64,000 nt of DNA from a virus, in the IMG/VR virus record IMGVR_UViG_3300037502_002993, positions 62,001 through 126,000 of that record, one strand, 5' to 3'. Within the stretch, counting starts at the first letter, position 1; each line of letters starts with the position of its first letter. This document shows, piece after piece, positions 1 through 35,260 of this stretch. Below the pieces are notes generated by a model. The model saw nothing but the letters and a program-made list of their open reading frames with translations. It ran no database searches and was not told where the DNA came from. The translations under genes were made by a program, and so were the position numbers.

Positions 1-967
1 AGAGTTGGGTCTCCTTCACCATCTCTTCCAGGTAACGATACTTCCCACCCCTACCGTAGTTGGCTGAGAGGACCGTAAGGGTCTCTTTTAGCAACTGCGG
101 CGGCATGGTGTGCATGGCACTGGCAATCACATCCACTAGCTCCTGCCGGATTAAGCTGCGTTCATTGCGACACACCTGATCCATGTAGCGGATATAGGAA
201 CTAAAACCCCCACGCCGATCGCGCAGGACGGTATCCCCATCCATGTTGATGGTGGTGGCACTCACGCTCTTGTGACGTGTTCCGGCTTCCTTCAGTTTGA
301 TGTACTCATCGTAAAGGGTCTTCACCAACTCACGAATACGCCCCTGGGTGTCAGTGACCGTACGAATGATCATCGGCTCGTCTTCAAATTCCTGTAAAAC
401 CCCCTGATAGATCCGGTTGACTAACAGGTCCTCGCTGCGGGCTTCTAACAGCGCCTTCCAGCTGCCGTAACGTTTCAGGTCAAAGCGTCGGTTCAGACTG
501 GCATAGAGCGCCTGGGCAATCTCTGGGTCTGCCAGATAGCGAAACCGTGGCACCAAAAGACTGGTCAGGAAACGGTAATGTAGTACCATGAAGCAGTGCT
601 TCTGTGCCTCTTTCCTCAGCTGACTGGACAGCCCCTTCTCTTGATTCAATCGATAGACCACATAGACGGGGGTATAATTGAACACATCCCCGCTGACTTT
701 AAAGTCGTGGTTGATGGCACTGGCGTTCTCAAAGTCCTTCTCAAGCAATGTCTCGTCGACATCAAGTACCATGTCGTACCAATAGTCACGATCACTGTCC
801 AGAAAACGTACTGGATGGACACCTAATAATGCCCCACCAAAGAAGGCCGCGTGGTCATCATTGCGGGTCATGAAACGATTGGAGTATTGGATGATGCGCT
901 GACACATCATTCGATCAAACTTGACTTCAGAAAACTGCCGGTCAAAGATCTCTTTTAACGTAGCCAT
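1..967 (-). CDS. virion structural-type protein, 3' end outside window
   Basis: The reading frame starts at the ATG complementary to 965-967 and stays open to the window edge, so only the first ~322 residues are visible. They begin MATLKEIFDRQFSEVKFDRM and form a mixed alpha/beta, soluble-looking protein with no motif I recognise. It heads the same minus-strand direction as terminase and the large virion genes. Assignment as a virion or packaging-region protein rests on position only. The missing C-terminus could hold the informative domain. Confidence 0.6.
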   Translation of the reverse strand, partial: MATLKEIFDRQFSEVKFDRMMCQRIIQYSNRFMTRNDDHAAFFGGALLGVHPVRFLDSDRDYWYDMVLDVDETLLEKDFENASAINHDFKVSGDVFNYTPVYVVYRLNQEKGLSSQLRKEAQKHCFMVLHYRFLTSLLVPRFRYLADPEIAQALYASLNRRFDLKRYGSWKALLEARSEDLLVNRIYQGVLQEFEDEPMIIRTVTDTQGRIRELVKTLYDEYIKLKEAGTRHKSVSATTINMDGDTVLRDRRGGFSSYIRYMDQVCRNERSLIRQELVDVIASAMHTMPPQLLKETLTVLSANYGRGGKYRYLEEMVKETQL

Positions 968-12226: not shown

Positions 12227-14323
12227 ATGGCCAACCTGACCAACTCCCATCCGAGATTTATCTTCGGTGGGATTAATGACCAATCGCGGGGAACGATTCC
12301 CCTTGAGGCGGAGACGTTCGCCCAACACCTGCCACTGGTGAGAATCTTTGCCCAAGATGGCCCGAGTGAGACCTTCTACATTGGTCCCAACTCAGGCTCT
12401 TTTGCCGACATCTACGGTTCTGATACCCTCAACCGCCGCAGCAAGTACTTCAACACCCAGTCCCTGCTCGTGGAGCAGCTGCTGGAACAGGGCAACGGCC
12501 TGTTCGTCAAGCGCCTGATTCCTGACGACGCTGAAGCCCCTGCCCGTCTGATCCTGGCCATGGACATTGTGGAGGATGACATCCCCCGCACCATCGGGTC
12601 GCTGGACGGCTTCGATTACCCCACTGGCGAAGCGCCCAATCCCGATGGTTATGTCGTTAACGAAAATGGCGACATCGAAACCGTTCCGGGTTACCGTGCA
12701 CGCCTGGTGCTGATCGAGGACACTGAGACCGAGGTGGGTGGTCAGTCTGTGGTTGATGGTGCTTTTGTGTCTGAGCGTGATGGGACTCAATCCACCCTCT
12801 ACCCGCTCTTCGAACTCCCCACCCGCTTTGTCGGTGAGGGTGGTCAGCTCAAGGGTATCCGTCTGTGGGCCCCCACCACCAACGATGCGATCCCGTTCGA
12901 TGAGTCGGTGGCAGAGGCGTTCAAGACCCGCGTCTATCGCATTCAGATGGTGAAACGCAGCGCTGACGGTGGCTCTCCTGTGACCGTACGGACTCGCAGT
13001 GGCGAAGAGTACGTGGATGTAACCTTCACTCCCGGTGCCTACTCCCCGTCAACCGATCGGGAATACTACATCGGTGATACCCTGATCGATGCCTATGAGG
13101 ATGACGGCATTACCACCGGCACTGCGCCGCGTTTTGCCCCGTTCTCTGATATCCACGTCTATCAGGACAATATCACTGCCATCCAGGAGATGATTTACGC
13201 CCAAGAACTGCACGCGCTGGTTAACCCAGCCGCTGCAGCCTATCTGGAAGCCGCTTCCCAGATCGATATCTTTACTGGCCGTGAAGCGGATGGGGACCAG
13301 CACGTGGCCCTCCACCTGGAAGGTCCGATGTCGGGTGGTCTGCGTCTCTCCTCTGATACCGTGCTGTATGCTTCCGGTGGATCTGACGGCACCATCAGCC
13401 TGGAAGAGTACGAGCGCTTGGTCACTCGTGAGAACGTGAACTTCGGGGAACTGGACGACCAGTACGAGAACCTCGCCATGTTCCCGTTCAGTGTCATCTA
13501 CGATACGGGCCTCTCCATGGCCGGTAAGCGTAACATGATGCGAGTCCTTGGTCGCCGTCAGGACGTACGTTGCGTCTTCACCACCTACGTGGAAGCGGAT
13601 GGTCGTGCACCGACGGCCTCTGAAGAACTGTCGCGCTGTCAAGCCCTGATGGCAGACCTGCGTGCCTTCCCGGAATCCATCCTGTATGGCACTGGGGTGT
13701 GTCGGGCTGAGATCATCCTGCAAACCGGTCGCCTGGCCAATGGCAATTACCTGAAGCCCGTACCTCAGGTGATCGACTACGCCACCCGGTGGGCAGACTT
13801 TGCCGGTGCGGCTACTGGTATCATGCGTGCTGGTCGTGATATCGACAAGGCCGGCAACAAGCGCGTGACGGCTGTGCGTGACCTCAACGTCACCTTCTTC
13901 AATACCCGGATGCAGTCCGAACTGTGGAACAATGGCGGGACCTACTCCCTGACCTATGATCGCCGCAGTCAGTACTACCCGGCCATCCAGTCGGTCTACA
14001 CGGACAAGACCAGCGTACTGGTGTCTCCGATCACCGTACACATCTGCTGTGATATCATTCGCTTGATGCGTCTGGTACATGCGGAGTTTTCCGGTGACAG
14101 CACCCTGACGGCCGGTCAGCTCATCGAGCGTTGTGAAGACATGACACAAGAGTTGGTCAATGGTCGCTATAATGATCGTGTCAATATCACCCCGGAGTTC
14201 TATTACACCGAAGGGGATATCGAACGCGGCTATTCCTGGCATGGTCGGGTTCGGGTAGAGGCCAACAACGTCCGTACGGTGATGGTCTTCGACCTCGAAA
14301 CTCAGCGCATGGGAGATAACTGA
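12227..14323 (+). CDS. tail sheath protein
   Basis: 698 residues, starting MANLTNSHPRFIFGGINDQS with AAGGAG 6 nt upstream. The contractile sheath drives DNA injection. Family features: N-terminal block with SGSFADIYGS and LLEQGNGLFVKRLIP (sheath N-terminal fold), a long central insertion, then the C-terminal handle domain with AATGIMRAGRDIDKAGNKRV and LNVTFFNTRMQSELWNNGGT. The length is typical for jumbo myophages. The next gene is the tube protein, overlapping by one base (TGATG), the usual order. Confidence 0.85.
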   Translation: MANLTNSHPRFIFGGINDQSRGTIPLEAETFAQHLPLVRIFAQDGPSETFYIGPNSGSFADIYGSDTLNRRSKYFNTQSLLVEQLLEQGNGLFVKRLIPDDAEAPARLILAMDIVEDDIPRTIGSLDGFDYPTGEAPNPDGYVVNENGDIETVPGYRARLVLIEDTETEVGGQSVVDGAFVSERDGTQSTLYPLFELPTRFVGEGGQLKGIRLWAPTTNDAIPFDESVAEAFKTRVYRIQMVKRSADGGSPVTVRTRSGEEYVDVTFTPGAYSPSTDREYYIGDTLIDAYEDDGITTGTAPRFAPFSDIHVYQDNITAIQEMIYAQELHALVNPAAAAYLEAASQIDIFTGREADGDQHVALHLEGPMSGGLRLSSDTVLYASGGSDGTISLEEYERLVTRENVNFGELDDQYENLAMFPFSVIYDTGLSMAGKRNMMRVLGRRQDVRCVFTTYVEADGRAPTASEELSRCQALMADLRAFPESILYGTGVCRAEIILQTGRLANGNYLKPVPQVIDYATRWADFAGAATGIMRAGRDIDKAGNKRVTAVRDLNVTFFNTRMQSELWNNGGTYSLTYDRRSQYYPAIQSVYTDKTSVLVSPITVHICCDIIRLMRLVHAEFSGDSTLTAGQLIERCEDMTQELVNGRYNDRVNITPEFYYTEGDIERGYSWHGRVRVEANNVRTVMVFDLETQRMGDN

Positions 14324-15186
14324 TGACTCGCTACGCCAACCCCTTCCTCGGCAACCGCGCTTTCGGGCGCGGTCAGGCTGAGAACATGATCAACCCCGCC
14401 CAGGCGGGGACGCGTCAGTTTGCTCCTGACCTGGCGAACATCGCCAGTAACACCCCTTACGTTCGGCGTAATGTCATTCCCTTCCTGATCGAAGCCCCGC
14501 GCTTCTTCCAGTACATGCCGAATGCGGACGTTCTGGTGCGTTGCCTGAAGGCCATGATCGAGGTGCACACGCGCTCCATCGACGGCCTCAACAAGCAGCT
14601 CACTGTGACCAGTGCTGAATCCCCCTGGGGTGGTAGCGGTGAACGTATTCAGACGCCCACTAACGTGGAACGGGCAGTCAGCACCCCGACCCACGGCATG
14701 TGGGAACTCCAGGGTCGTGCAATCTCCAAGTTTGTGCGTTTCTGGATTCAGTTTGGTATCGGTGACGAGAACACCAAGGTCCCGCTGGTGGTGGCTAATG
14801 GCAACATTACTGCCAGTCAGTACGATCAGACGTTCTTCGGCGCTACAGTGCTGTATGTTGAGCCTGACCCCACCATGACTGATGTGGTGGACGCCTGGCT
14901 TGTCACCAACATGTATCCCACCCAGACCGCCCCCTGGGAAGGTTCCAAGGACGCCAGTCAACTCGGTCAAACCCTGGATATCTCTCAGGAGTTTACCGGT
15001 ATCGCTGACGTCTCCATGGGGACCCATCTGTTCGCCAAACAGAAGCTCCAGGAGCTCAACCTGCTGGGTCTGAATCCGAATGAGCGCCCGCTGTGGCTTG
15101 AGCGGGTCAGTGCAGATGTTCAGGCGGCAACGAATGGTATCGACCAGCAGCTCCAAGAAGGTGCCTCCAGCCGGATCTCCTTCTGA
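14323..15186 (+). CDS. tail tube protein
   Basis: 287 residues starting MTRYANPFLGNRAFGRGQ. It directly follows tail sheath with overlapping stop and start codons. The segments FFQYMPNADVLVRCLKAMIE, IDGLNKQLTV and FWIQFGIGDENTKVPLV recall the tube proteins of jumbo myophages, which form the inner hollow tube inside the sheath. There is no membrane segment or catalytic motif. The assignment rests on synteny plus that resemblance. Confidence 0.75.
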   Translation: MTRYANPFLGNRAFGRGQAENMINPAQAGTRQFAPDLANIASNTPYVRRNVIPFLIEAPRFFQYMPNADVLVRCLKAMIEVHTRSIDGLNKQLTVTSAESPWGGSGERIQTPTNVERAVSTPTHGMWELQGRAISKFVRFWIQFGIGDENTKVPLVVANGNITASQYDQTFFGATVLYVEPDPTMTDVVDAWLVTNMYPTQTAPWEGSKDASQLGQTLDISQEFTGIADVSMGTHLFAKQKLQELNLLGLNPNERPLWLERVSADVQAATNGIDQQLQEGASSRISF

Positions 15187-19185: not shown

Positions 19186-19207
19186 ACCCCCCACATCGGC
19201 GGGGGGT
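19186..19207 (-). terminator. intrinsic terminator
   Basis: On the minus strand a CCCCCC/GGGGGG stem is followed by TTCTTTT. It lies just after the solo omega-RNA-like copy at 19215-19345, so a transcript entering that copy would end here. Confidence 0.6.
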
Positions 19208-19214
19208 TAGTTCA

Positions 19215-19345
19215 TTGACACTCCACTCCCTAAAGGAAGTGGATTCTTGCTTCATTGAACTGACTTACCTTCGGTAAGGAAGGCAGAGGTCCTGTTCTCC
19301 ACAAGCGTTTTACGAGTCCGTATACCCTACGGCCTCTGCTGACTC
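19215..19345 (-). ncRNA. solo IS605 right end / omega-RNA-like copy A
   Basis: Read on the minus strand it shares GCAGAGGCCGTAGGG, GGACTCGTAAAACGCTTGTG, TTACCGAAGGTAAGTCAGTT and a terminal hairpin ending in GAGTGTCAA with the sequence that forms the 3' end of tnpB (30550-30690) and with 33816-33942. No tnpB remains beside it. Its end hairpin (CCACTTCC/GGGAGTGG) differs from the other copies in both arms, so pairing is kept. It lies directly after the 75-residue gene and before a terminator, so it can be transcribed. Confidence 0.65.
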
Positions 19346-19350
19346 ATAGC

Positions 19351-19578
19351 TCAAGCTACATCTAAGCGGTATAACAATTCAGTAGAGCGACGTTGCATTA
19401 CCGGAAGTGCTTTGACCTCATCAAGGTTACGTCCGGTAGAGAGGTCCAGTGCATAGGCATCGATATCAAAGTCATCTTCAGAGGGAAGTGACAACACGAT
19501 GGGGTCATCCTCGATCTCAGATGCCAGACTGCTCCAGAACCCCGTACCATTTACCTGTGTGAGTATGTTATCTACCAT
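19351..19578 (-). CDS. small acidic protein, 75 aa
   Basis: MVDNILTQVNGTGFWSSLAS with GAGGAG upstream of ATG. Acidic (EIEDDPIVLSLPSEDDFDID) with a short basic C-terminal helix. No family recognised. The stop lies at the border of the solo omega-RNA-like copy, so the insertion may have replaced the original 3' flank. Confidence 0.5.
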   Translation of the reverse strand: MVDNILTQVNGTGFWSSLASEIEDDPIVLSLPSEDDFDIDAYALDLSTGRNLDEVKALPVMQRRSTELLYRLDVA

Positions 19579-19652
19579 TTTTATTGGCTCCTCAGCCCTT
19601 CAGTTGTTGCGTTATTGTGGGGTTCATTCCCCATCGGATTGTGTAAGATTAC

Positions 19653-30521: not shown

Positions 30522-30549
30522 TCGTACGTCTCCTTCACGGTTTCATTGC

Positions 30550-30690
30550 TTGACACTCCCCTTCTTAAAAGAAGGGGATTCTTGCTTCACAGAACTGACT
30601 TACCTTCGGTAAGGAAGGCAGAGGCCACTTTCTCCACAAGCGTTTAGTGAGTCCGTATGCCCTACGGCCTCTGCTAAAGCCACTGTTCAA
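30550..30690 (-). ncRNA. omega-RNA / right end of the tnpB element, copy B
   Basis: Begins inside the last tnpB codons and runs to the right-end hairpin. Contains GCAGAGGCCGTAGGGCATAC, a TTACCGAAGGTAA stem-loop and AATCCCCTTC/AAGAAGGGG. TnpB nucleases use such 3'-end RNAs as guides, with the targeting part being the sequence just beyond the right end (GCAATGAAACCG on the minus strand). Two further near-copies without tnpB are at 19215 and 33816. Confidence 0.7.
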
Positions 30691-31904
30691 GCAGTGAGGT
30701 GGTGTTCTTGGATGAACACCGCTGTGAGTGTTTGTCTTAAATGACTGGTGGGCGGTAGTTGTTCCAGAGCCATGGTCCTTAAGTTGATGGCCGCGTTGTG
30801 ATCGCGATCATGCGTGGTCTTGCAAGAAGGACAATCCCACCAGCGTTGGTGTAGCTTGAGCTTCAGTTTCCCCTCTAAACGATGGTTACACGCACTGCAG
30901 GTCTGAGTACTGGGAAAGAATCGTTCCGCAATGACGACCTTGCAGTGCTGTGACTCATCGGCCTTGTAGACCAACTGAGTCAGGAACTGCCGCCATCCAC
31001 AATCAGCAATGTGTTTAGCGAGTCTCCTGTTCCTGACCATACCCTCAATATTGAGGTCCTCAATAGCAATAGTCATGCATTGGTCTACAAGGCTTCTAGA
31101 AAGCTTGTGCTGAAAGTCCATCCGACACCGCTTGGTTTTTGCGTATATCTTGGCGACTTTCAGCCTCTGCTTTCTGTAGTTGGCACTGCCTTTGACTTTG
31201 CGTGATAGATCGCGCTGTGCCCTCGCCAGTTTCCTGGCATACTGCCCTTGGTATTTGGGTTTGGCATACTCCTTCCCTTCTGAGTCTACCGCAAAGGTCT
31301 TAATCCCTAAGTCCGATCCCAAATGAGACTCCCCATTCGTGAGTCGAGGTTCACATTCACAAATGAAACAAGCATAATACTTACCATCAGACTCACGAAT
31401 GATACTACAGGAAGAAGGTTGGGTGGGGAGTACCCCACCCCATTTCTCGTTCTTGTAACTCCATTTAGTTTTGATGGGGGACTGCATGACTTTCGCCATG
31501 CGGAAATCCCCTGTTTCTAGATTTAAAGTAAAAGCAGCCTTCGTCAGTCGGATGGACTGACGACTGACCCGCTTCTTGTACTTGGGAAATCCAATCTTCC
31601 CTTTCCCTTTGAAAAAGGATTGGAAAGCAGTCCCTAGGTCCCGTAGGGACTGCTGTAGGATGACGGATGAAACCTCATAGAGAAACCCAAACTCATCTTT
31701 TAGTTCGGGAAGACGGTAGGTGAGTGCATTTGCACTCAGTTTGGGTTTCTCTAATGTTGGGTCCGTCTGGTAGGCTTTGTATTCCTCTTGTACCCTACCC
31801 AGTACCTGATTCCAGACAAACCGTTTACAGCCAAACGACCTCACCAGGAGGTCAGTTTGCATGGCATTCGGATAGATCCGAAAACGAAATGTTTTCGTTG
31901 CCAT
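30687..31904 (-). CDS. tnpB: TnpB, RNA-guided nuclease of IS200/IS605 type
   Basis: 405 residues, full family length. MATKTFRFRIYPNAMQTDLL and CKRFVWNQ are typical N-terminal signatures. The RuvC-like core looks intact: Asp198 in LGSDLGIKTFAVD, Glu282 in IAIEDLNIEGM, and Asp366/368 in HDRDHNAAINL, with a zinc finger of Cys336, Cys339, Cys358 and Cys361 (TCSACN...CPSCK). Known members cut DNA matching their omega-RNA guide, which maintains the element. With no tnpA, it may persist as a homing-type nuclease in the phage. The 3' end overlaps the omega-RNA. Confidence 0.9.
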   Translation of the reverse strand: MATKTFRFRIYPNAMQTDLLVRSFGCKRFVWNQVLGRVQEEYKAYQTDPTLEKPKLSANALTYRLPELKDEFGFLYEVSSVILQQSLRDLGTAFQSFFKGKGKIGFPKYKKRVSRQSIRLTKAAFTLNLETGDFRMAKVMQSPIKTKWSYKNEKWGGVLPTQPSSCSIIRESDGKYYACFICECEPRLTNGESHLGSDLGIKTFAVDSEGKEYAKPKYQGQYARKLARAQRDLSRKVKGSANYRKQRLKVAKIYAKTKRCRMDFQHKLSRSLVDQCMTIAIEDLNIEGMVRNRRLAKHIADCGWRQFLTQLVYKADESQHCKVVIAERFFPSTQTCSACNHRLEGKLKLKLHQRWWDCPSCKTTHDRDHNAAINLRTMALEQLPPTSHLRQTLTAVFIQEHHLTA

Positions 31905-31984
31905 GGTTGGCCTCCTGGGGAAATGAGTTAGTGTATATGTTAGTATTTAATGGTCTCTCACCAGGCGGGGTCTGGTGATGCAAA

Positions 31985-32899
31985 TCATCCTCCACCTGAA
32001 GGAGGAGGCTTTATGACCACTGGGTAACCTGACGTTTGGTTGGGATCGGCATCACGCAGCGGGGGTTTCTTTTGTGTAATGATCTTGGGTAATGTTTTAA
32101 CTAACACCTTTTCCATTTTGGTTCTTGGTTTGCCAATGGCTTTCAGCCACTCTTCTGGCGTAAGGTTCCTTTTTATTGAATTACAGGTCTGGCAGGATAG
32201 AGTGGCGTTAACTTCTGAGTTAGATCCACCCCTAGACTTGGGGATCTTGTGCTCCCATTGGAGAATTTTATCCCCACTAACTCCAAGGCAGTATTGGCAC
32301 GTATGGTTGTACCTGTAGAGTAGATACTCACGCATCTCGGTACCGAAGAGCCTGCCCTTCTGATATTCTTTGTCTTTGATACCAGGATTCTTCAGTAAGT
32401 GGGTATCAAACTTTACCTCTTCGACCTTGGCGCTGGTGATGGGACACCAGCGCATGAAGCGATCGATCCAAGTCTGGGTAGTGAGTGCTCGATGTTGGAT
32501 GGAGGGTGGAAGCCACCCTTTAGGTCTAGCGCGGTTCAAGAACCGCGCGGGACGATACCGGGTTTTCCTAGAACGACGAGATCGGCGATACATTGCTCGG
32601 CTAGCCAAACGCTTACGGATCACCTGACCGCGATGCACTAGGTTAATTCCTAACACGCATCGGTCCCCTCGCTTATCGTGAGAGATCACGGCAATCCCGG
32701 TGGTCTTCGAACCAGGATCAATCTGAATGGAAAAGTTATTCCTGATTGGTCCTTTCGGGACATAGTTCAGAATGATAATGAATGGGTACCGTCGGAAGAC
32801 GGCGGCTTTGCCCTTGCGTAACAATTCCCGAGCACGTGCTGGATGACACGGTGCTAAAGGAATTCGATTGGCGTCTAGCACCAATACGTAATTTGACAT
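31985..32899 (-). CDS. iscB: IscB-type HNH/RuvC nuclease, C-terminally truncated
   Basis: 304 residues; intact IscB is usually 400 or more. N-terminal RRXRR/PLMP-type region (MSNYVLVLDANRIPLAPCHP, ARELLRKGKAAVFRR), RuvC-I IQIDPGSKTTGIAV (Asp61), Arg-rich bridge helix (RRSRRSRKTRYRPARFLNR), RuvC-II VEEVKFD (Glu160/161), and an HNH domain with CQYC, QWEHKIPKSRGGSN and CQTCNSIKRN. The frame then loses similarity soon after KKPPLRDAD, so the RuvC-III His/Asp motif and target-binding domain are missing. The last residues (KPPPSGGG) are encoded by the left end of the tnpB element. It might still nick through HNH, or be inactive. Confidence 0.8.
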   Translation of the reverse strand: MSNYVLVLDANRIPLAPCHPARARELLRKGKAAVFRRYPFIIILNYVPKGPIRNNFSIQIDPGSKTTGIAVISHDKRGDRCVLGINLVHRGQVIRKRLASRAMYRRSRRSRKTRYRPARFLNRARPKGWLPPSIQHRALTTQTWIDRFMRWCPITSAKVEEVKFDTHLLKNPGIKDKEYQKGRLFGTEMREYLLYRYNHTCQYCLGVSGDKILQWEHKIPKSRGGSNSEVNATLSCQTCNSIKRNLTPEEWLKAIGKPRTKMEKVLVKTLPKIITQKKPPLRDADPNQTSGYPVVIKPPPSGGG

Positions 32900-33065
32900 G
32901 ATTTAGGTTTCCCTAATAGTCTACTCGGGTTCAAGACCCTTGTGTTACGTGAACCTCGACAATGTTCAAAAGGCTTGTCATGCACGCCGCACCGCCCCTA
33001 CCTCACAGGACTTTTAACGACGCACCTTAGAGCCAGGGGCTGGTTCGGCCACCCCTGGGTAAGAT
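32900..33065 (-). ncRNA. candidate omega-RNA upstream of iscB
   Basis: IscB omega-RNAs are encoded just 5' of the gene. This 166-bp stretch has no frame and contains, on the minus strand, a CCAGGGGTGGC/GCCCCTGG-type hairpin and a GC-rich GGGGCGGTGCGGCGTGCATG block, then leads into the iscB start. Its boundaries and guide cannot be fixed by eye. Its survival beside a truncated nuclease may mean the decay is recent. Confidence 0.45.
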
Positions 33066-33105
33066 CACCTAATGAACGGAGTCCCTGTTAGGGGACAGAG
33101 TCTGG

Positions 33106-33750
33106 TCAGCATTCCCGGAAGGGGACTCCAAGTTGATGGAGGGTGTTACTGACAATATCGCTAACCGTGCTCTTGGTGGTGTCATGACAAAGGGCCGTGT
33201 GGTTACCTGCCTTCTGCAATCGTTGCCGGGCAAACAGGTGACGCCTTTGATCGAGGGTTGTGTCATCTAAGACGTCCAACCGATTGATATCTTCCCGATC
33301 ACGAATCCGCTCACGGATGGTGGCGTTGTCCGCGTCCAGGTAGAGCGTCAGATTGGGAGGAACAATAGGTACCCACCCCAGGCCCTTTGGGGTAGTGTTA
33401 GCAATCAGGGTATCAAGTGTCGGGTTGTTGTCACCCTGATAGACATAGGTGGTATCGAGGTGACGGTCACTGATCACCCACCAGCCTTCATCCACTAGCG
33501 GTTTGATGACCTTGGTCAGGTGCTCCCACCGCTGGGCCTGCATGATAAGAATCTCCGTCTCAGGACACAGATCGGTGTAGCGAAACAGTAACGATCGGAT
33601 CTCCTCACCGAATGGGGTCCCTCCGGGTTCTTTGGTGAGGGTGGCCTTATGACCCAAGCTGTTTAGAGCATCTCTTAACGCCCTAGCAATAGTGGACTTA
33701 CCTACGCCATCCTGCCCTTCGATGATAATGAACCCACCTGATGGTGTCAT
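33106..33750 (-). CDS. tmk: thymidylate kinase
   Basis: 214 residues, the normal family size. Phosphorylates dTMP to dTDP. P-loop EGQDGVGKST (residues ~10-19), KEPGGTPFGEEIR (dTMP-binding loop with the conserved EPGG), and the DR-type motif ISDRHLDTTYVYQG (~93-106) followed by the lid region TIRERIRDREDINRLD. With dCTP deaminase it suggests the phage boosts the thymidylate supply. It lies between the iscB and omega-RNA elements, so this locus has collected insertions. Confidence 0.9.
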   Translation of the reverse strand: MTPSGGFIIIEGQDGVGKSTIARALRDALNSLGHKATLTKEPGGTPFGEEIRSLLFRYTDLCPETEILIMQAQRWEHLTKVIKPLVDEGWWVISDRHLDTTYVYQGDNNPTLDTLIANTTPKGLGWVPIVPPNLTLYLDADNATIRERIRDREDINRLDVLDDTTLDQRRHLFARQRLQKAGNHTALCHDTTKSTVSDIVSNTLHQLGVPFREC

Positions 33751-33782
33751 CCTACCTCCTTTGAATTAGCTGGACACAATTC

Positions 33783-34070
33783 GCAAAGAGCCTGCAAACT
33801 CGTCACCTCGGTGATTTGACACTTCCCTTCTTTTAAGAAGGGAATTCTTGCTTCATTGAACTGACTTACCTTCGGTAAGGAAGGCAGAGGCCACGTTCTC
33901 CACAAGCGTTTTACGAGTCCGTATGCCCTACGGCCTCTGCTAAAGTCACTGTATTTAGTGGCCTTATACCAGACTACGTCTGGAGATATCATTCACCCCC
34001 CTCCTTTAGGAGGGGGTTTTACGATCGCAATCGATAAAGATCCTGCAAGATCACCATCCTGGTGATATAA
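33783..34070. repeat. imperfect ~35-bp direct repeat flanking the IS605 remnant
   Basis: AGAGCCTGCAAACTCGTCAC then CTCGGTGAT at 33786-33815, and AGATCCTGCAAGATCACCAT then CCTGGTGAT at ~34040-34067, lie on either side of the remnant. IS605 elements make no target duplication, so this may be an older duplication into which the remnant inserted. Confidence 0.35.
33816..34022 (-). mobile_element. IS605-like remnant with omega-RNA copy C, tnpB lost
   Basis: On the minus strand: left-end-like TCGTAAAACCCCCTCC with hairpin (~33998-34016), about 50 bp of remnant, then the omega-RNA block (GCAGAGGCCGTAGGGCATAC, GGACTCGTAAAACGCTTGTG, TTACCGAAGGTAAGTC) and the right-end hairpin TTCCCTTCTT/AAGAAGGGAA ending in GTGTCAA at 33816. 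The whole is ~205 bp, MITE-like. The omega-RNA is closer to copy A than to the tnpB-linked copy. An 81-codon frame crosses it and is not a gene. Confidence 0.6.
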
Positions 34071-34091
34071 GTCTGAAAATGACTTCAATCC

Positions 34092-34132
34092 ACTGTTGAC
34101 ACTCCCCTTCTTAAATGACGGGGTTTTACGAC
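34092..34132 (-). mobile_element. IS605-like end-to-end scar (copy D)
   Basis: TCGTAAAACCCC of a left end is followed within 10 bp by AAGAAGGGGAGTGTCAA of a right end on the minus strand, with no omega-RNA between. Its outer flank GGTTGTGGTCGTAAAACCCC matches the flank GATTGCGATCGTAAAACCCC of the neighbouring remnant. Looks like an internally deleted element. Confidence 0.45.
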
Positions 34133-34160
34133 CACAACCGATAAAAAGAATACCACAATA

Positions 34161-34186
34161 GACAGCCCGCACTTAAGCGGGCTGTC
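34161..34186 (-). terminator. intrinsic terminator after the 34207-34620 gene
   Basis: GACAGCCCGC/GCGGGCTGTC 10-bp stem, followed on the minus strand by TATTGTGG and then TTCTTTTTATC. Confidence 0.7.
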
Positions 34187-34206
34187 GGAATGACGCTAAC
34201 GCACTA

Positions 34207-34620
34207 TCAGATCGCGTCAAACAGTTCCTGTACGGCCTTCATGGCTTTGTTGGTATCCGCCCGATTGGGCTCTTTCCAACTGGCCACAGCCCGCACGCTT
34301 TCTTCGCCCTTCTCCGGGGAGCGGTTGAAGAACAGATCCTGCTCCATGTAACCTACCTTGTAGGACAGGGAGAGTTCTTTACTCTCCCCGTTCTCACGGA
34401 AGTGATCGCGGGCCAGTTCACCGGCAGCAAGCACTGTACCGGAGAGAACCTCTTGGTTGTGCTTTTGCAGCTTCTTCACCTGCTCAAGCGTCAGACCCTC
34501 GGGCAGGGTGGCCTCATAGTAGTCATCACTGACGTCAATGGTACCGGTCTTGGCATTGACGGTCAGCTTGTCTTTGAGGCCGAACTTTTCTGCATGGGCT
34601 TGGGCTTTCAGTGTGGACAT
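34207..34620 (-). CDS. hypothetical protein, 137 aa
   Basis: MSTLKAQAHAEKFGLKDKLT with AAGGAGTAACTCCGCA before ATG. Soluble, charged helices, with one beta patch (KELSLSYKVGYM). No family recognised. Monocistronic: promoter motif 80 nt upstream, terminator downstream. The pattern suggests an abundant early protein, but the function is unknown. Confidence 0.6.
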   Translation of the reverse strand: MSTLKAQAHAEKFGLKDKLTVNAKTGTIDVSDDYYEATLPEGLTLEQVKKLQKHNQEVLSGTVLAAGELARDHFRENGESKELSLSYKVGYMEQDLFFNRSPEKGEESVRAVASWKEPNRADTNKAMKAVQELFDAI

Positions 34621-34699
34621 TGCGGAGTTACTCCTTACGGTTTAAGATTCCCAGTGCATGGGTTGAGGGACGTAGACCTTGTCTGCCACTCCCCAGAAT

Positions 34700-34713
34700 G
34701 ATCTAGGTGTCAA
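34700..34713 (-). promoter_or_regulatory. phage promoter-like motif (TTGACACCTAGATC)
   Basis: Best match to the TTNACACCTAKATC consensus on the minus strand, located between the terminator of one gene and the start of the 34207-34620 gene. Confidence 0.6.
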
Positions 34714-34730
34714 TTTTCTTGGGATAGGAC

Positions 34731-34762
34731 AAAAAAAGAACACCCCTCATCTCGTGAGGGGT
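34731..34762 (-). terminator. intrinsic terminator after the 34769-35260 gene
   Basis: ACCCCTCA/TGAGGGGT stem followed by GTTCTTTTTTTG on the minus strand. Confidence 0.75.
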
Positions 34763-34768
34763 TTCGGT

Positions 34769-35260
34769 TTAAGACGCCACGACGAACTTCGGGGAGTCGT
34801 CGATCATCAACATGTCATCCTTCAACGTGATGGTGTAGCTGACCCGAGTGAAGGCAATGCGCAATGCGTCGATCGCGCGTTCTTCTGTGGTGGGGATCAT
34901 CTCGCCTTTAAAATACTTGCAGAACGTGGCGTTTTCATGTCGTCCACTGTAGAACGTCCACAGGGTTTGGGCAAGTGCCGTGGGGCTGTCCCCCACTCGC
35001 ACAGCGCGCAGGGTCTTACGCTCAACCTCACTTCCTGAGGCGTTGGTGGTCACGTAGTGAATCTCAGCACGCTCCGGGGTAACGTCAACGACCACTTCCA
35101 GAAGCTTGCGGTGGGTGTTGATGATCAGGTCCTCACACTCTACTGCGCGCTTATAACACGCAGTGGTGCCTTTCAGGTGCTTGACCAACACCGAAAGAGT
35201 GAAGCGGCAGAACGGACGACTGGCATCAAGGGTGGGTTTGGCCTTAAGGAAATTAAACAT
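34769..35260 (-). CDS. hypothetical protein, 163 aa
   Basis: MFNFLKAKPTLDASRPFCRF with GGAGAGTC upstream. Alternating strands and helices, four cysteines scattered without a metal pattern. No family recognised. Monocistronic, with promoter motif and terminator. Confidence 0.6.
   Translation of the reverse strand: MFNFLKAKPTLDASRPFCRFTLSVLVKHLKGTTACYKRAVECEDLIINTHRKLLEVVVDVTPERAEIHYVTTNASGSEVERKTLRAVRVGDSPTALAQTLWTFYSGRHENATFCKYFKGEMIPTTEERAIDALRIAFTRVSYTITLKDDMLMIDDSPKFVVAS

What the first reader, a model, noticed from the sequence alone, without database searches (positions are those of the whole stretch)
30550..34132. IS605 nest with solo omega-RNA copies that keep their end hairpin by compensating changes
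Three copies of the same ~130-nt RNA-like block occur at 19215, 30550 and 33816. Only the middle one is attached to tnpB. The terminal hairpins read AATCCACTTCC/GGGAGTGG, AATCCCCTTC/AAGAAGGGG and AATTCCCTTC/AAGAAGGGAA, with changes on both arms that keep pairing, while the block before them is nearly constant. This suggests selection on RNA structure, so the orphan copies may still act as guide RNAs for the phage TnpB in trans, each with a different flanking guide.
Basis: partly seen in the sequence, partly recalled or inferred. Interest (0 to 1): 0.75.

Follow-up and report, generated by a model that had tools for sequence, protein, structure and literature searches.

The report
Gene-less TnpB guide-RNA mini-elements in phage
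A phiKZ-like giant phage carries eight copies of a guide-RNA block made by TnpB 'jumping-gene' nucleases; four copies have lost the nuclease gene but keep an intact, structurally constrained guide RNA, so they may still steer the phage's remaining TnpB enzymes, although no activity has been shown.

Summary
Confirmed and extended. The ~128-nt block is a TnpB omega-RNA. A covariance model built only from this phage's copies finds it at the 3' end of tnpB in distant relatives, with 32 of 35 base pairs covarying. The phage record (220,598 bp, phiKZ-like) has eight copies, all on one strand: three with full tnpB, one with 5'-truncated tnpB, four solo. It also has two 45-bp end-only (PATE-like) elements and no Y1 transposase.

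The solo copies are non-autonomous IS605-type derivatives. They lost tnpB at distinct breakpoints, all 0-31 nt upstream of the omega-RNA; each has its own flanking guide.

The hairpin changes are real, but alone do not show RNA selection: the left-end hairpin, which is not in the RNA, diverges the same way, as expected for a transposase DNA hairpin. RNA-level constraint shows better in the body: paired columns are nearly invariant while unpaired ones vary (p=0.003), and omega-RNA is 100% identical between two elements whose tnpB genes are 79.5% identical.

Trans-guidance is plausible (three catalytically intact TnpBs, shared scaffold, reconstructable TTAT+guide empty sites) but untested; no guide target was found. 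The kind is known (PATEs; standalone omega-RNAs): a new member with unusually informative truncations.

The parts
30550..32023 (-). TnpB-only (IS1341-type) IS605 element; left outer end 32023, preceded by TTAC (32024-32027), right end TTGACAC at 30550
   Evidence: Pfam OrfB_IS605/Cas12f1-like_TNB. The left boundary is less certain here than in the TTAT copies.
30687..31904 (-). tnpB, 405 aa, RuvC D/E/D motif residues present
   Evidence: aligned to ISDra2 TnpB 8bf8/8h1j, 1.8e-60
30550..30677 (-). omega-RNA attached to tnpB; guide 30534-30549 (GCAATGAAACCGTGAA)
   Evidence: R1 model 158.8 bits
33816..34033 (-). solo mini-element, 218 bp: left-end hairpin then direct jump to omega-RNA, tnpB entirely removed; TTAT at 34034-34037
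   Evidence: the joined flanks give a ~33-bp tandem repeat
33816..33943 (-). solo omega-RNA; guide 33800-33815 (ATCACCGAGGTGACGA)
   Evidence: 157.3 bits; 8 differences from consensus, 0 pairs broken
19215..19370 (-). solo remnant: last ~7 tnpB codons + omega-RNA (19215-19342), left end lost, TTAT retained at 19371-19374; guide 19199-19214 runs into an intrinsic terminator
   Evidence: 150.3 bits
34096..34140 (-). 45-bp end-only (PATE-like) element: left-end arm joined to right-end arm; TTAT at 34141-34144
31985..32899 (-). isrB (RRXRR + HNH), neighbour of the tnpB element
32944..33153 (-). HEARO (IsrB omega-RNA), overlapping the 3' end of thymidylate kinase
   Evidence: 120.1 bits

Best explanation
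The phage was colonised by IS605-family elements of the TnpB-only type. Deletions inside or across some copies removed tnpB (and in some the left end) but left the right-end-encoded omega-RNA whole. The solo copies are non-autonomous mini-elements or remnants that still specify a full TnpB scaffold plus a site-specific guide. Most likely mechanism (inferred): the solo RNAs are transcribed with neighbouring phage genes, bound by TnpB from the intact tnpB copies, and direct cleavage of TTAT+guide, i.e. the uninterrupted allele in co-infecting or sister genomes, so that recombinational repair copies the mini-element (non-autonomous homing/retention). Shown: omega-RNA identity, structure, tnpB loss, intact catalytic motifs, element boundaries for several copies. 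Inferred: transcription, binding in trans, cleavage, benefit.
For: R1, built only from this phage's copies, finds the RNA at the 3' end of distantly related tnpB (best relatives 36-43% protein identity): 33 hits in 80 viral loci and 51 in 80 genome loci at E<=1, nearly all at that position. In the family alignment 32/35 pairs covary, 0/500 shuffles. Body paired columns vary 2/52 versus 11/43 unpaired, p=0.0026; omega-RNA 128/128 identical between elements whose tnpB is 79.5% identical. Solo 33816: 8 differences, 0 broken pairs (P=0.008); solo 19215: 13 differences, 1 broken (P=0.004). Four solo copies have distinct left junctions, all 0-31 nt 5' of the omega-RNA; no tnpB piece exists without omega-RNA. 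Joined flanks at TTAT restore a CxxC zinc-ribbon ORF (record 50072), an ORF start (44652) and a tandem repeat (95816). RuvC residues intact.
Against: No expression data and no target found for TTAT/TTAY+guide of four copies in viral contigs or in the window. The guide of 19215 falls partly in a terminator stem. Retention of omega-RNA could reflect recency. Two solo copies lost the left end and cannot be re-mobilised by a transposase. Nothing here shows that TnpB accepts the solo RNAs. No relative close enough to show an empty allele was found.
Confidence: 0.55

Rival explanations
1. Inert remnants: the solo blocks are recent deletion products with no function; the omega-RNA is intact only because little time has passed, and the right end remained because deletions happened to start upstream.
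For: IS605-type elements commonly suffer core deletions (PMC3119063). The 34020 copy shows plain truncation with loss of host codons. Solo RNAs are only 4-13 changes from consensus.
Against: Left junctions of all four solos cluster within 31 nt of the omega-RNA start although ~1,350 bp was available (uniform chance about 0.03 each; my estimate). Changes avoid breaking pairs. In cyanobacteria several solos also start at about -10 to -6 relative to the omega-RNA, although those hits were ascertained by a full-length RNA model.
Confidence: 0.3
2. The compensating hairpin changes reflect DNA, not RNA: the right-end hairpin is a single-stranded DNA recognition element for a Y1 transposase supplied in trans, or a palindrome kept perfect by template-switch correction. 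(Not exclusive of the best explanation.)
For: Left-end hairpins outside the RNA show the same paired divergence. Two 45-bp end-only elements without omega-RNA body lie at TTAT sites. Within the seven close copies, two-sided pair changes occur only in this hairpin.
Against: It does not explain conservation of the body stems or family-wide covariation there. No Y1 transposase in the record.
Confidence: 0.45
3. Domesticated guide RNAs for a nuclease-dead TnpB (TldR-like repression).
For: Several guides for one TnpB family, in a phage.
Against: All three full-length TnpBs keep the D/E/D motif and zinc-ribbon cysteines. Guides are simply insertion-site flanks.
Confidence: 0.04

Closest known systems
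ISDra2 TnpB and its reRNA/omega-RNA (PMC8612924)
   Same: TnpB with RuvC D/E/D, ~130-150 nt right-end RNA at the 3' end of tnpB, guide from flanking DNA, motif 5' of the left end as candidate TAM
   Different: No tnpA in the record; four copies have no tnpB; TAM candidate TTAT/TTAC rather than TTGAT; activity untested
PATEs and core-deleted IS605-type elements of Haloquadratum (PMC3119063)
   Same: End-only elements of about 50 bp and internally deleted IS605-type elements at short target oligonucleotides, no transposase
   Different: In a phage, and most deleted copies keep exactly the omega-RNA
Standalone omega-RNAs that function with IscB (cited in PMC9581776 from Altae-Tran 2021)
   Same: omega-RNA loci without a nuclease gene, expected to work in trans
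   Different: TnpB rather than IscB; function in trans not tested here
IS605 TnpB gene drive in plasmids (PMC11870625)
   Same: TnpB nuclease activity spreading or retaining the element, akin to homing
   Different: There the nuclease gene is in the element; here it would be supplied in trans

Membership tests
TnpB (OMEGA nuclease) | OrfB_IS605 / Cas12f1-like TNB domains and RuvC D-E-D residues | tested here: met
TnpB (OMEGA nuclease) | Structured omega-RNA overlapping or following the 3' end of tnpB and ending at the right end | tested here: met
TnpB (OMEGA nuclease) | RNA-guided DNA cleavage with a TAM | not testable with these tools
   Only a candidate TAM (TTAT/TTAC) from element boundaries
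IS200/IS605 element | Subterminal hairpins at both ends, insertion 3' of a fixed short target, no target duplication | tested here: met
   for copies 50072, 44652, 95816, 96096; for 180839. Copies 92550 and 190200 do not show TTAT.
IS200/IS605 element | Y1 transposase TnpA in the element (autonomous form) | tested here: not met
   PF01797 absent from the record: these are TnpB-only or non-autonomous forms
PATE | Both palindromic ends without transposase gene | tested here: met
   window 34096-34140 and 33816-34033. Not met by 19215, whose left end is lost.
Standalone (trans-acting) omega-RNA | Complete omega-RNA without nuclease gene | tested here: met
   four copies
Standalone (trans-acting) omega-RNA | Guides the nuclease in trans | not testable with these tools
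   none
TldR (nuclease-dead TnpB repressor) | RuvC catalytic residues lost | tested here: not met
   D/E/D present

The most novel reading that the evidence does not exclude
TnpB has its own class of guide-only mini-elements: tnpB is deleted up to the 5' boundary of the omega-RNA, repeatedly and independently in phage and cyanobacteria, leaving trans-acting RNAs that home with a TnpB supplied elsewhere. In this phage they form a multi-guide set aimed at uninterrupted alleles of competing phages.
Probability: 0.3. Interest if true: 0.72.

Novelty: new member of a known kind. Interest (0 to 1): 0.45.

Why it matters
If the solo RNAs work, a non-coding element of about 130-220 bp could spread by RNA-guided cleavage using another element's nuclease, making non-autonomous RNA-guided homing directly testable in a phage. 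It also shows that hairpin compensation at IS605 ends cannot by itself be read as RNA selection.

Tried and rejected
Close relatives by single-protein scan, by omega-RNA pattern in viral contigs and by DNA in phage records: none. Other phiKZ-like records carry no R1 match, so orthologous empty sites could not be compared. Guide matches in the window: only own sites at 0 mismatches. Rfam does not hold this RNA; only HEARO nearby. The long-range GCAGAGGCC/GGCCTCTGC pairing was rejected because two solo copies break it, whereas the structure used is kept. The CUUACC/GGUAAG hairpin was rejected in favour of UGCCUUC/GAAGGUA, which covaries in copy 190200. Structure prediction was not run, since solved ISDra2 TnpB already aligns over nearly the whole protein.

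Full report
Setting. The window is bases 62001-126000 of a 220,598-bp virus record. Its large terminase is about 50-56% identical to those of phiKZ, PhiPA3 and similar phages, and several window proteins match phage structural families.

Observation. The whole record has eight copies: with tnpB at 34020 (5'-truncated), 50072, 92550 (window 30550) and 190200; solo at 14269, 44652, 81215 (window 19215) and 95816 (window 33816). Two further 45-bp copies have both ends but no omega-RNA body: record 96096 (window 34096-34140) and 180839. All ten lie on the same strand.

What the block is. I built covariance model R1 from the eight phage copies alone. Searched against 160 loci of TnpB relatives (at best about 36-43% protein identity), it gave 33 and 51 matches at E<=1, nearly all on the coding strand at the 3' end of tnpB. 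In the 51-row alignment 32 of 35 pairs change on both sides, 91.2% of cells pair, and no shuffle reaches this. That alignment was fitted to the structure, so the counts lean towards it, but sliding the partners collapses the signal. This is a TnpB omega-RNA, not matched by any Rfam family.

How the solo copies arose. The left end is TTAT followed by a hairpin; the right end is a hairpin then GTGTCAA. Joining the flanks at TTAT restores the reading frame and final CxxC of a zinc-ribbon gene (copy 50072), the start of an ORF matching phrog_7413 (44652) and a tandem repeat of about 33 bp (95816). Copy 44652 keeps the left end and 25-27 tnpB codons, then jumps at a shared GCA to the omega-RNA. Copy 95816 keeps the left end and jumps before the tnpB start. 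Copy 81215 keeps TTAT but only the last ~7 tnpB codons, now the tail of a host gene. Copy 14269 keeps only about 10-17 nt upstream, inside an HNH-endonuclease ORF beside a group I intron. Thus four left junctions, distinct in structure, all lie 0-31 nt before the omega-RNA. A search for tnpB pieces found none without an omega-RNA.

RNA or DNA selection. Among all eight copies seven pairs change on both sides versus 1.4 in shuffles. Four of these are in the terminal hairpin; the other three come only from the divergent tnpB copy 190200. IS605 ends are recognised as single-stranded DNA hairpins by Y1 transposases (established knowledge), and here the left-end hairpin, which is not in the RNA, shows the same paired divergence. 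The hairpin alone is therefore not evidence for RNA function. The body is: among the seven close copies, 2 of 52 paired columns vary versus 11 of 43 unpaired (p=0.0026), and the omega-RNA is identical at 128/128 positions between two elements whose tnpB genes are 79.5% identical. Recombination between copies could also produce that identity. Solo 95816 has 8 differences and no broken pair (P=0.008 under random placement), 81215 has 13 and one broken (P=0.004), and 14269/44652 have 4 each and none broken. These random-placement tests treat linked changes as independent.

Could they guide in trans? The full-length TnpBs keep the D/E/D residues, shown for copy 92550 by alignment with ISDra2 TnpB. 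Two of them, differing at 17% of residues, share an identical scaffold, so the close solo scaffolds are probably acceptable; this is inference. Every solo copy has a different guide. No TTAT+guide match was found in viral contigs for the four copies scanned and no off-site match in the window. The 19215 guide runs into a terminator stem, which may hinder it.

Is this unusual? Solo omega-RNAs of the same family also occur elsewhere. In six cyanobacterial genomes, 59 sampled matches divide into 29 with full tnpB, 10 with partial and 20 with none; some of the latter begin about 6-10 nt before the omega-RNA relative to a tnpB-linked copy. A second phage contig has an omega-RNA identical to its tnpB-linked copy behind only about 38 tnpB codons. 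These samples were selected by a full-length RNA model, so they cannot measure how often omega-RNA is lost. PATEs and core-deleted IS605 elements are described (PMC3119063), and standalone omega-RNAs are reported to work with IscB (PMC9581776). I therefore call this a new member of a known kind.

Noticed in passing
window 31985-33153 (-): IsrB gene with HEARO RNA next to the TnpB element; the HEARO 5' end overlaps the 3' end of thymidylate kinase (33106-33750), so its guide would be thymidylate-kinase sequence (about 33154-33173). Two unrelated RNA-guided nuclease systems lie side by side.
   Followed up: partly
record 188-721 (+), L017: Second RRXRR-domain protein in a 489-aa open frame, possibly IscB, at the very end of the record.
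   Followed up: no
record 13574-14740 (-), L007: Group I intron (Rfam RF00028, 73.8 bits) beside an HNH-endonuclease ORF interrupted by the 14269 solo omega-RNA: one mobile element inside another.
   Followed up: partly
L214, L215, L217, L223, L230, L231, L246, L247, L251, L261, L262: A cyanobacterial family of solo omega-RNA elements with a shared non-coding stretch of about 250 nt upstream of the omega-RNA, without an Rfam match in those members scanned.
   Followed up: partly
window 19360-19580 (-): A small phage gene now ends in TnpB-derived codons (YRLDVA stop) because the solo element sits at its stop codon; its original terminator follows the guide.
   Followed up: partly
record 34020-35200, L002: 5'-truncated tnpB in a DUF4326 gene whose first ~27 model positions are missing: a deletion crossing the element's left end into the host gene.
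   Followed up: yes
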